In this document: positions 1,212 through 44,425 of the stretch, piece after piece
How positions within the stretch are numbered: position 1 is the first letter of the stretch
How the letters are laid out: every line of letters begins with the position of its first letter
From: Liolophura sinensis
Taxonomy: Eukaryota > Mollusca > Polyplacophora > Chitonida > Chitonidae
Reading direction: 5' to 3'
NCBI RefSeq assembly: GCF_032854445.1
Contig: NC_088301.1
Span: 54,917,187 to 54,981,186 of the forward strand
Length of the DNA stretch: 64,000 nucleotides
Notes under the pieces: model-generated
Seen by the model: only the letters and a program-made list of their open reading frames with translations
Told to the model about the DNA's origin: nothing
Databases searched by the model: none
Translations under genes and position numbers: made by a program

Positions 1212-1218
1212 CATAAAT
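1212..1218 (+). promoter_or_regulatory. possible TATA-like element of the neuropeptide gene
   Basis: CATAAAT lies about 200 bases before the neuropeptide ATG. An initiator-like TCAGAGC follows about 20-30 bases downstream, which would leave a 5' UTR of roughly 170 bases. The spacing is reasonable, but such heptamers are frequent in AT-rich DNA, so this is weak. Confidence 0.2.
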
Positions 1219-1414
1219 TCTAGGGAATCTCCGTCAGAGCACGAGACCGGGAGATCAGAAGTTGAGGAACCGTCCTGTTTGTGTGGACTTGAGAGAAACC
1301 CTTCAGAACTCCATCGGTTCCCCAGCCGCTACGCTACAAGCTTCTCCGAAAGCCGCTCAACGGCCACGGTCTCTTGTAGATACTTTTCAAGACTCTGCAC
1401 ACAAAAGCCCGATC

Positions 1415-1759
1415 ATGACTCGACTTTCCTTCTATTTATTATGCGCTGCAACCATCGCCGCTGTTTTACTGCTAACATCCAGCGTGTCCGCTGATCCAGA
1501 AGCTGGCAATTTTCACAGACCCAGAAGAAGTGCCGATGAAATAGAAGAACCAACGTTAGTAGACAAGAGGATAAGAGACTTCCTGGGGAAAAGAATCCGA
1601 GACTTCTTAGGCAAGCGTTTTGACCCAAGATACAGCCCATATGAAAACACACCTGACAAGCGCATCAGGGATTTCCTTGGAAAACGATCGTCATACGGAT
1701 TGGAGAACGAAGAGGACTTGGCCCCTTACGAAAAACGGCTTCGCGACTTCCTGGGCTAA
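1415..1759 (+). CDS. RDFL-amide neuropeptide precursor (IRDFLamide x3, LRDFLamide x1)
   Basis: This is a secreted prohormone of 114 residues, complete from ATG to TAA in one exon. Residues 1-26 form a signal peptide: T-R after the Met, a Leu/Ala/Val-rich core, and an SVSA cleavage site before DPEA. An RPRR furin-like site lies at 35-38. Cassettes follow: IRDFLGKR at 53-60 and 61-68, spacer FDPRYSPYENTPD at 69-81, IRDFLGKR at 84-91, acidic spacer SSYGLENEEDLAPYE at 92-106, then KR and a terminal LRDFLG at 109-114. Family knowledge predicts KR cleavage and use of each Gly for amidation. The last Gly ends the protein and needs no basic residue after it. Cassettes one and two differ in six of eight codons, all synonymously, which is strong evidence of real coding. 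The start is the first in-frame ATG and has A at -3. The pattern resembles molluscan LRNFVamide precursors; the family assignment is inference. Confidence 0.9.
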   Translation: MTRLSFYLLCAATIAAVLLLTSSVSADPEAGNFHRPRRSADEIEEPTLVDKRIRDFLGKRIRDFLGKRFDPRYSPYENTPDKRIRDFLGKRSSYGLENEEDLAPYEKRLRDFLG

Positions 1760-17333: not shown

Positions 17334-18614
17334 ATGCACATCTGTCTGCTACAACATTTATCTGAAATGTGCTTTATTATACAGTAGGGAGACTTTATAA
17401 GGATGTTATAATATAGAAATGCACATCTGTCTGCTACAACATTTATCTGAAATGTGCTTTATTATACAGTAGGGAGACTTTATAAGGATGTTATAATATA
17501 GAAATGCACATCTGTCTGCTACAACATTTATCTGAAATGTGCTTTATTATACAGTAGGAGACTTTATAAGGATGTTATAATATAGAAATGCACATCTGTC
17601 TGCTACAACATTTATCTGAAATGTGCTTTATTATACAGTAGGGAGACTTTATAAGGATGTTATAATATAGAAATGCACATCTGTCTGCTACAACATTTAT
17701 CTGAAATGTGCTTTATTATACAGTAGGGAGACTTTATAAGGATGTTATAATATAGAAATGCACATCTGTCTGCTACAACATTTATCTGAAATGTGCTTTA
17801 TTATACAGTAGGGAGACTTTATAAGGATGTTATAATATAGAAATGCACATCTGTCTGCTACAACATTTATCTGAAATGTGCTTTATTATACAGTAGGGAG
17901 ACTTTATAAGGATGTTATAATATAGAAATGCACATCTGTCTGCTACAACATTTATCTGAAATGTGCTTTATTATACAGTAGGGAGACTTTATAAGGATGT
18001 TATAATATAGAAATGCACATCTGTCTGCTACAACATTTATCTGAAATGTGCTTTATTATACAGTAGGGAGACTTTATAAGGATGTTATAATATAGAAATG
18101 CACATCTGTCTGCTACAACATTTATCTGAAATGTGCTTTATTATACAGTAGGGAGACTTTATAAGGATGTTATAATATAGAAATGCACATCTGTCTGCTA
18201 CAACATTTATCTGAAATGTGCTTTATTATACAGTAGGGAGACTTTATAAGGATGTTATAATATAGAAATGCACATCTGTCTGCTACAACATTTATCTGAA
18301 ATGTGCTTTATTATACAGTAGGGAGACTTTATAAGGATGTTATAATATAGAAATGCACATCTGTCTGCTACAACATTTATCTGAAATGTGCTTTATTATA
18401 CAGTAGGGAGACTTTATAAGGATGTTATAATATAGAAATGCACATCTGTCTGCTACAACATTTATCTGAAATGTGCTTTATTATACAGTAGGGAGACTTT
18501 ATAAGGATGTTATAATATAGAAATGCACATCTGTCTGCTACAACATTTATCTGAAATGTGCTTTATTATACAATAGGGAGACTTTATAAGGATGTTATAA
18601 TATAGAAATGCACA
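17334..18614 (+). repeat. 85-bp satellite array, 15 near-identical copies
   Basis: The unit runs ATGCACATCTGTCTGC through TTATACAGTAGGGAGAC to GATGTTATAATATAGAA and recurs every 85 bases, with anchors at 17341, 17426, 17511, 17595 and on to 18530. Copy three lacks one G (84 bp) and the last copy has CAATAG for CAGTAG; the rest look identical. Each unit contains GCACAT/ATGTGC (6-bp inverted repeat) and TTATAA-5nt-TTATAA. The length is not a multiple of three and stops occur in each unit, so it is not coding. Such uniformity suggests recent amplification or gene conversion. Confidence 0.98.
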
Positions 18615-43029: not shown

Positions 43030-44425
43030 TACAAGACGCAAATAGTTGCGATAGACAAATATTGACAAGACCAGGCAGACGGTTCTCTTACCACCAGTAA
43101 ACCAGTATGCTTTTCAAATCAATTCCTACCCAAAGAACCATATGTACGTGATAGTATAGACTGCATGTTAGAGAAACGTGGACTATTCCCTGAACCAAAC
43201 TGGATGTTCGAAATATCTAACTTAGCCACATTTAGTTCAAAGTACATGCATCTCATTCACAACATTTGTGGTACAATCTAAAAACATGGGTGCTAAATAA
43301 ACCCATTGAGGATCTTATGTAATCATGGATACCATTTACATATCATTGACATGTTTTAAACAGGCAGATGGGTCCCATTACATGGCACTATTAGCTGTGA
43401 CACACAAATATGGACAAGGACTAGGAAACGGTCTCCATTACTTCACGCCATTAGCTGTGATAGACAAATATGGACAAGGACTAGGAAACGGTCTCCATTA
43501 CTTCACGCCATTAGCTGTGATAGACAAATATGGACAAGGACTAGGAAACGATCTCCATTACATGACGTCATTAGCTGTGATAGACAAATATGGACAAGGA
43601 CTAGGAAACGGTCTCCATTACTTCACGCCATTAGCTGTGATAGACAAATATGGACAAGGACTAGGAAACGGTCTCCATTACTTCACGCCATTAGCTGTGA
43701 TAGACAAATATGGACAAGGACTAGGAAACGGTCTCCATTACATGACGTCATTAAACAAACAAGGGCACGAACAGGCAGACGTTTAACAATTACATGACGC
43801 CATTAGCTAATGTAAACAAATATGGACAAGAACATTAAATGACACAAAACTGGTACAGACAAATACTGACTAGATACCGTTGGCTGTCACAAATATGGAG
43901 AAGAAGAAGGAGACTGTTTCAATTAAAGGCGCTATAAGCTGCTATTGACAAATAGAACAGGCAGACGTTTATTATTACATGACGCCATTAGCTGGTGTAG
44001 AAAAACATGGACAAGAAGAACGAAATGGTTCAAGCTAAATGACAAAATTAGATGGTATAGACAAATAAATGCAAAAACAGGCAGACTGTTCCCATTACTA
44101 GATACCATTAGCTGTGATATACAAATATGGCCAAAAACAGGCAGACGGTTTTCATTAAATGACGCTATAAGGTGTGATAGACAAATGTGGACAAGAAGAG
44201 ACAGACTTTTCCCATTAGATGCCGCAATAAGCCGCTATAGACAAATATGGACAATAAAAGGCAGATGGTGTCCATTACATGACACCATTAATTGCAAGGT
44301 ACAAATATGGACAACAGTTGGGTGAGGCTTCCCAATACAATGATACAGTTTACTGTGGGTGACAAAATACAGATAATAACAAAAGATTACATGACATCAT
44401 TATCTGCGGTTGCACGGAATACACG
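43030..44425 (+). repeat. 60-bp satellite with a homogenised core and diverged flanks
   Basis: The unit is roughly CCATTAGCTGTGATAGACAA, ATATGGACAAG, then a variable stretch and CATTACATGACG. Between about 43371 and 43760 six units are almost identical. Outside, at 43030-43105 and 43780-44425, they are diverged with indels. Within the core the unit type alternates in a period of three (TTCACGCC, TTCACGCC, ATGACGTC), so a 180-bp block has been duplicated. Because 60 is a multiple of three, open frames persist (43325-43786 and 43945-44325), in different frames; these are not taken as genes. Confidence 0.93.

What the first reader, a model, noticed from the sequence alone, without database searches (positions are those of the whole stretch)
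1415..1759. Neuropeptide precursor with RDFL-amide cassettes
Four X-R-D-F-L-G cassettes with KR sites follow a signal peptide. DNA of the cassettes is strongly synonymous-diverged while the peptide is fixed, so the mature peptides IRDFLamide (three copies) and LRDFLamide (one copy) are under selection. The nearest family I know is molluscan LRNFVamide; N to D and V to L at the core would make this a divergent branch or a separate family. A DFL-amide ending is not one I can name.
Basis: partly seen in the sequence, partly recalled or inferred. Interest (0 to 1): 0.75.

Follow-up and report, generated by a model that had tools for sequence, protein, structure and literature searches.

The report
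Chiton pentapeptide neuropeptide precursor, IRDFLamide
A chiton gene encodes a small, probably secreted protein that should be cut into four copies of a five-residue neuropeptide; it looks like the chiton member of a known molluscan peptide family, with a core that also resembles the invertebrate counterpart of thyrotropin-releasing hormone.

Summary
Window 1415-1759 (+) is a 114-residue single-exon precursor: signal-peptide-like start, dibasic sites, IRDFLG three times, LRDFLG once at the stop codon. Cassette copies differ at 5-7 of 18 bases; only I/L changes the peptide.

The assembly matches that of the chiton Liolophura japonica.

In that genome an LRNFVamide/FLamide-type query has the window gene as best match (E 6.5e-6). 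The only other match at E<=1 was a gene 8.2 Mb away on the same scaffold (E 0.2), whose exons read as the chiton fulicin/EFLGamide (protostome TRH) gene. A looser query ranked the window gene 18th of 150 matches; the 149 other matches, at 65 places, held no amidated R-x-F-[LVI] array.

Most likely this is the chiton LRNFVamide/FLamide-type gene with an unreported RDFL core. It has the Arg-2 of LRNFVamides and the acidic residue 3 of fulicin/EFLGamides, groups already linked in print. It is a new member of a known kind; the "DFL-amide ending" matches fulicin/EFLGamide. Expression, processing, orthology and receptor are untested.

The parts
1415..1759 (+). IRDFLamide/LRDFLamide precursor, 114 aa plus stop, whole coding sequence in one exon
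   Evidence: the only ATG in the open frame is at 1415; single locus in the genome search
1415..1492 (+). probable signal peptide, residues 1-26, cleavage inferred after ...SVSA
   Evidence: hydropathy maximum 2.74 at residues 8-20; cleavage site read by eye, no SignalP available
1493..1570 (+). N-terminal spacer DPEAGNFHRP-RR-SADEIEEPTLVD-KR, with dibasic sites
   Evidence: direct reading of the translation
1571..1594 (+). cassette 1: IRDFL-G-KR
1595..1618 (+). cassette 2: IRDFL-G-KR, directly after cassette 1
1619..1663 (+). spacer FDPRYSPYENTPD-KR
   Evidence: direct reading
1664..1687 (+). cassette 3: IRDFL-G-KR
1688..1738 (+). acidic spacer SSYGLENEEDLAPYE-KR
   Evidence: direct reading
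1739..1759 (+). cassette 4: LRDFL-G followed by the stop codon, so the C-terminal Gly is itself the amide donor
   Evidence: the fulicin-type exon at C7:46.73 Mb ends the same way...KRGLEFLG stop
1217..1414 (+). probable 5' untranslated region, open in frame but without ATG; transcription start not determined
   Evidence: inference only

Best explanation
This is the chiton (Liolophura japonica) gene of the LRNFVamide/FLamide type, within the broader fulicin-related family of lophotrochozoan pentapeptide F[L/V/I]amides. The precursor enters the secretory path through its signal peptide. Prohormone convertases cut at KR and RR, carboxypeptidase trims the basic residues, and PAM converts the exposed glycines to amides. 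That would give three IRDFLamide, one LRDFLamide and spacer peptides per molecule, released from dense-core vesicles to act on a G-protein-coupled receptor. Shown here: the sequence, the cassette layout, that it is a single locus, and that it is the best match in its own genome to scallop-type LRNFVamide cassettes. Inferred from established neuropeptide biology: secretion, cleavage, amidation, receptor action. Function is unknown; by analogy with relatives (snail fulicin and MIP on reproductive muscle, PMC8398477; Platynereis FLa on larval swimming, PMC7737342) it would be a neuromuscular or ciliary modulator.
For: Layout and cassettes. A query of scallop-type LRNFVamide cassettes finds this locus best (E 6.5e-6, 64% identity) and the fulicin exon second (E 0.2); these are the 2 of 4 candidates that pass E<=1. 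A looser LRNFVamide query (293 candidates, 150 scored) also lists this locus. The 149 other scored matches lie at 65 places; all were screened by script and none has even one R-x-F-[LVI]-G-[KR][KR] motif in an open frame. [I/L]RDFL aligns better with LRNFV (BLOSUM62 15/17) and the scallop LRNFVamide list (mean 9.3/9.9, n 9) than with the chiton fulicin cassettes (mean 6.6, n 11). Arg at position 2 is in 8 of 9 scallop peptides and 0 of 11 fulicin cassettes (list from PMC5996578).
Against: Position 3 is acidic as in fulicin/EFLGamide (11 of 11 chiton cassettes) and in only 1 of 9 scallop LRNFVamide peptides. The full precursor's only other match in the genome is the fulicin exon (E 0.006), which in turn has this locus as its best non-self match. 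In the looser LRNFVamide query this locus ranked only 18th (E 7.4e-5), below tandem-repeat frames, which shows how little such E-values mean for KR-rich repeats. Pentapeptides carry little information. No orthologue from another mollusc could be compared. 143 of the 293 candidates were never scored, and a diverged or multi-exon LRNFVamide gene could be missed.
Confidence: 0.68

Rival explanations
1. It is a lineage-specific paralogue of the fulicin/EFLGamide (protostome TRH) gene that acquired Arg at position 2, not the LRNFVamide orthologue, and it would act on a TRH-receptor orthologue.
For: Same -[D/E]-F-L-amide end; the fulicin exon is its only other match in the genome (E 0.006) and has it as best non-self match (E 5.9e-5); same scaffold, 8.2 Mb apart; both precursors end with a cassette whose Gly precedes the stop. 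Arg-2 plus acidic-3 occurs in C. elegans TRH peptides (G/A)(R/N)ELFamide, as reported in PMC8398477.
Against: 0 of 11 chiton fulicin cassettes have Arg at 2. The gene structures differ: the fulicin gene has a separate signal-peptide exon and two peptide exons, whereas this coding sequence is one exon.
Confidence: 0.24
2. It is the chiton PRQFVamide/Mytilus-inhibitory-peptide type gene.
For: PRQFVamide shares X-R-X-F-[V/L]amide; family described as present across lophotrochozoans (PMC6425005).
Against: A PRQFVamide/MIP-style query scores this locus weakly (E 0.4) and the fulicin exon better (E 0.009); the three other places it matched are tandem-repeat frames. No Pro in any cassette.
Confidence: 0.05
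3. It is not an expressed gene: a chance frame or decayed precursor.
For: No transcript data were available here; no Pfam match for the protein.
Against: Intact frame with ATG, hydrophobic start, four cassettes and synonymous divergence among them; 4 cassettes in one frame against at most 1 in 200 shuffles.
Confidence: 0.03

Closest known systems
Molluscan LRNFVamide precursors (for example Patinopecten yessoensis, PMC5996578) and annelid FLamide
   Same: Pentapeptide X-R-x-F-[L/V/I]-amide, multi-copy, Gly amide donor
   Different: Asp at position 3 (scallop list: H, Y, F, and one E); only four cassettes here. That annelid FLamide is the same group is partly recalled; PMC3890597 places FLa with fulicins
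Fulicin / EFLGamide (protostome TRH orthologue; C. gigas fulicin, PMC8398477; Platynereis FVa/EFLGa, PMC3890597)
   Same: -[D/E]-F-[L/V/I]-amide ending; last cassette ends at the stop codon in the chiton copy as well
   Different: Arg at position 2 here, aromatic or aliphatic in the chiton fulicin cassettes; single coding exon here, against a separate signal exon plus two peptide exons
PRQFVamide / Mytilus inhibitory peptides
   Same: R-x-F-V-like core (PRQFVamide), amidated repeats
   Different: No Pro; weak match only

Membership tests
Amidated neuropeptide precursor (general) | Signal peptide, dibasic sites flanking repeated peptides, Gly before the cleavage site | tested here: met
   signal peptide judged by hydropathy, not by SignalP
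Amidated neuropeptide precursor (general) | Expression and mature amidated peptide in neurons | not testable with these tools
   no RNA or mass-spectrometry data
LRNFVamide/FLamide | X-R-x-F-[L/V/I]-amide pentapeptides in multiple copies | tested here: met
LRNFVamide/FLamide | Best such gene in its genome, no better candidate found | tested here: met
   (best of 2 matches); one search ranked it 18th of 150, but the 149 others (65 places) hold no R-x-F-[LVI]-G-[KR][KR]; 143 of 293 candidates unscored
LRNFVamide/FLamide | Neutral, aromatic or basic residue 3 (N, Y, H, F) | tested here: not met
   Asp in 4 of 4 cassettes; the scallop list itself has one E, so I do not treat the feature as strict
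LRNFVamide/FLamide | Orthology by synteny or gene tree with conchiferan LRNFVamide | not testable with these tools
   no other mollusc genome held
Fulicin/EFLGamide (protostome TRH) | -[E/D]-F-[L/V/I]-amide ending | tested here: met
Fulicin/EFLGamide (protostome TRH) | Aromatic, aliphatic or small residue at 2, as in the chiton fulicin cassettes and C. gigas (F/Y)S(E/D)FL | tested here: not met
   Arg in 4 of 4; 0 of 11 in chiton fulicin; nematode GRELFamide has Arg at 2, so not strict
Fulicin/EFLGamide (protostome TRH) | Gene with shared signal exon and alternative MIP/FVa and fulicin exons | tested here: not met
   window coding sequence is one exon; that layout is read instead at C7:46.73 Mb
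Fulicin/EFLGamide (protostome TRH) | Activates a TRH-receptor orthologue | not testable with these tools
   receptor not searched; needs an assay
PRQFVamide/MIP | Pro in the peptide core | tested here: not met
   no Pro in any cassette; weak match

The most novel reading that the evidence does not exclude
IRDFLamide is a surviving bridge between LRNFVamide/FLamide and fulicin/EFLGamide (TRH). The two would be paralogues of one ancestral pentapeptide gene, still on the same chromosome in a chiton, with IRDFLamide keeping the acidic TRH-type position 3 and the LRNFVamide-type Arg-2. It could then be the ligand of the TRH-receptor orthologue, or of the second F[V/L/I]amide receptor whose existence is an open question in PMC8557429.
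Probability: 0.22. Interest if true: 0.55.

Novelty: new member of a known kind. Interest (0 to 1): 0.36.

Why it matters
No paper in the library held the RDFLamide-type names or strings searched; the 40 of 159 papers listed for shorter strings are, by title, not neuropeptide reports. In one search (15 of 30 papers listed) no title was devoted to chiton neuropeptides. Thiel et al. (PMC8557429, section 16 read) note that F[L/V/I]amide peptides are widespread in lophotrochozoans while the known receptor group was found only in annelids and brachiopods. A chiton in which two such genes were found, one of each core type on one scaffold, is a tractable case for that receptor question and for whether LRNFVamide and TRH-type peptides share an origin.

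Tried and rejected
Single motif matches elsewhere: rejected, lone motifs in short frames without repeats; the LRDFFGK motif 24 kb from the fulicin gene is one of these. The composite LRNFVamide query was noisy: this locus ranked 18th of 150 scored matches. I first screened 22 places, then on rechecking fetched the rest and screened them. One search confirms that 149 of 149 other rows, at 65 places, lie inside screened loci. One of these loci (L027) holds a lone FVGKR in a 13-aa frame; none holds R-x-F-[LVI]-G-[KR][KR]. One search repeated the test with a cleaner query. The remaining matches were also checked: GYDFTG repeats on C2 (E 0.0025) are a repeat frame without dibasic sites, and the other fetched or cut places hold no F-x-G-[KR][KR] motif of the kinds screened. 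The PRQFVamide/MIP query gave, besides the fulicin and window loci, three places that are tandem-repeat frames. Pfam gave nothing for the precursor and nothing over cut-off for the nine other frames tried, seven from the window and two from L002. Rfam gave 0 matches in the window. The bacterial promoter scan does not apply to an animal genome. ARAGORN found no tRNA in the mitochondrial pieces with the bacterial code. Paper search for short peptide strings: 159 papers held a term, 40 listed, none a neuropeptide report judging by titles. One TRH paper I wanted (PMC5441806) is not held.

Full report
What is there. Window 1415-1759 (+) encodes a 114-residue protein in one open frame. The open frame begins at 1217, and the only ATG in it is at 1415. 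The first 26 residues include a hydrophobic stretch typical of a signal peptide (cleavage site by eye). After RR and KR sites come IRDFLG-KR, IRDFLG-KR, a spacer, IRDFLG-KR, an acidic spacer, KR, and LRDFLG at the stop. The predicted products are three IRDFLamide and one LRDFLamide.

Is it more than chance? Yes. No mononucleotide shuffle of the window (0 of 200) had more than one F[LIVM]G cassette per open frame, against four here. The four cassettes differ pairwise at 5 to 7 of 18 bases. The codon differences over the six pairs sum to 21 synonymous and 3 non-synonymous, all three being the I/L difference of the last cassette. Random placement of as many changes left the peptide intact in 45, 58 and 5 of 200,000 trials for the three IRDFLG pairs. 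This supports old duplication under purifying selection, within the limits of four short cassettes of one gene.

Which animal. The window lies at C7:54917187-54981186 of an assembly of 609,464,459 bases in 632 contigs. Contig lengths 96,433,062, 60,359,117 and 37,343,639 equal scaffolds 1, 3 and 5 of the published Liolophura japonica assembly: 632 scaffolds, 609,495,693 bp, N50 37,343,639 (PMC11068029, passages read). Not everything agrees: the total is about 31 kb shorter here, and contig C6 (82,489,547) is about 3.7 kb shorter than scaffold 2 (82,493,220), which may reflect stretches removed or withheld. The mitochondrial contig C632 has cox3-nad3-nad2-cox1-cox2-atp6 on one strand and nad5-nad4-nad4L-cob-nad6-nad1 on the other (genes recognised by eye from the translations, only COX1 by Pfam). 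I recall this as the ancestral molluscan order kept in chitons. So the animal is a chiton.

A second, related gene. The only other match of the precursor in the genome is at C7:46730293 (E 0.006), 8.2 Mb away on the same scaffold. It reads as a fulicin/EFLGamide gene. A signal-peptide exon (MHVETRWLFLSSLITLYCGALVTGESNAK, then G at a GT donor) can join in phase 1 either to exon A or to exon B. Exon A (C7:46729052-46729884) carries HEFWG-KR, RYDFIG-KR and RHDFVG-KR and ends in its own stop. Exon B (C7:46730201-46730718) carries 11 cassettes such as GFEFLG, GYEFLG, GYDFVG, AYDFIG and GLEFLG-stop. Splice sites were read by eye from the DNA; no transcript was seen, so the alternative splicing is inferred. 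The layout matches the C. gigas fulicin/MIP gene, where alternative splicing including exon skipping yields either precursor, and the Capitella EFLGamide gene as cited there (PMC8398477, passages read). Fulicin/EFLGamide is regarded there as the protostome counterpart of TRH.

Where the window gene belongs. An artificial query of scallop-type LRNFVamide cassettes found the window locus best (E 6.5e-6) and fulicin exon B second (E 0.2); no other of four candidates passed E<=1. A looser query gave 150 scored matches of 293 candidates, with the window locus only 18th (E 7.4e-5). The 149 other matches fall at 65 places. All 149 lie inside loci that I fetched (coverage checked), and a six-frame screen found no R-x-F-[LVI]-G-[KR][KR] in any of them, one lone FVGKR in a 13-aa frame aside. 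So the matches above the window locus are not amidated peptide precursors of this type. A codon pattern of roughly [ILMF]R[ND]F[LVF]GKR gave three matches in this gene and four lone matches elsewhere. At the peptide level, Arg-2 is shared with 8 of 9 scallop LRNFVamide peptides and 0 of 11 chiton fulicin cassettes. Acidic residue 3 is shared with 11 of 11 fulicin cassettes and 1 of 9 scallop peptides. BLOSUM62 sums favour LRNFVamide. Against this, the precursor as a whole and fulicin exon B are each other's best non-self matches. The most economical reading is that this is the chiton's LRNFVamide/FLamide-type gene; the fulicin-paralogue reading remains open.

Relation to the literature. Conzelmann et al. 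group annelid FLa and FVa/EFLGa precursors with molluscan fulicins (PMC3890597, passages read; authors' name recalled). A Biomphalaria table calls LRNFVamide 'Fulicin-like precursor' (PMC5455113, passage read). Thiel et al. note that F[L/V/I]amide peptides are widespread in lophotrochozoans while the known receptor group was found only in annelids and brachiopods (PMC8557429, section 16 and passages read; authors' name recalled). The molluscan survey PMC6425005 (outline, parts 2 and 3 of its results, and passages read) gives no match for LRNF, RNFV, EFLG, TRH, FLamide or fulicin in its main text. Its supplements could not be read, so the chiton sequence may already sit in a supplementary file under another name. 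No paper in the library held IRDFLamide, LRDFLamide, RDFLamide, DFLamide, RDFLGKR, RDFVamide, RDFIamide or RNFLamide.

How it most likely works. By standard neuropeptide biology: secretion, convertase cleavage at KR/RR, carboxypeptidase trimming, PAM amidation, and action on a GPCR. None of these steps was observed. The function is inferred only by analogy: snail fulicin and MIP peptides act on reproductive muscle (PMC8398477), and Platynereis FLa is associated with downward larval swimming (PMC7737342, passage read).

Verdict. It missed the fulicin/EFLGamide (TRH) link that explains the -DFLamide ending. It is a new member of a known kind with a mildly unusual core. The two-gene situation on one chiton scaffold is the most useful by-product.

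Noticed in passing
G000:C7:46726734-46730718 (L036:1735-1822, L002:260-1092, L002:1409-1926): Chiton fulicin/EFLGamide (protostome TRH) gene with one signal-peptide exon and two apparently alternative peptide exons; exon A encodes unusual HEFWamide, RYDFIamide and RHDFVamide forms instead of the PxFVamides of oyster.
   Followed up: partly
G000:C99 (COX1 at about 15.5 kb steps, 7 copies) and C632: Contig C99 looks like a tandem concatemer of the mitochondrial genome (six COX1 matches with identical scores plus one partial), probably an assembly product or a nuclear insertion.
   Followed up: no
window 17334-18614: Tandem array of an 85-base unit, 15.1 copies, 99% matches: a very homogeneous, probably young satellite.
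   Followed up: no
window 43390-43753 and 44057-44288: Similar 60-base tandem arrays that leave long open frames in more than one frame; these look like repeats, not genes.
   Followed up: no
window about 320-450: Stretch resembling a tRNA-derived SINE tail that I recall from mollusc genomes (ends in AATAAATAAATAA); recalled resemblance, not tested.
   Followed up: no
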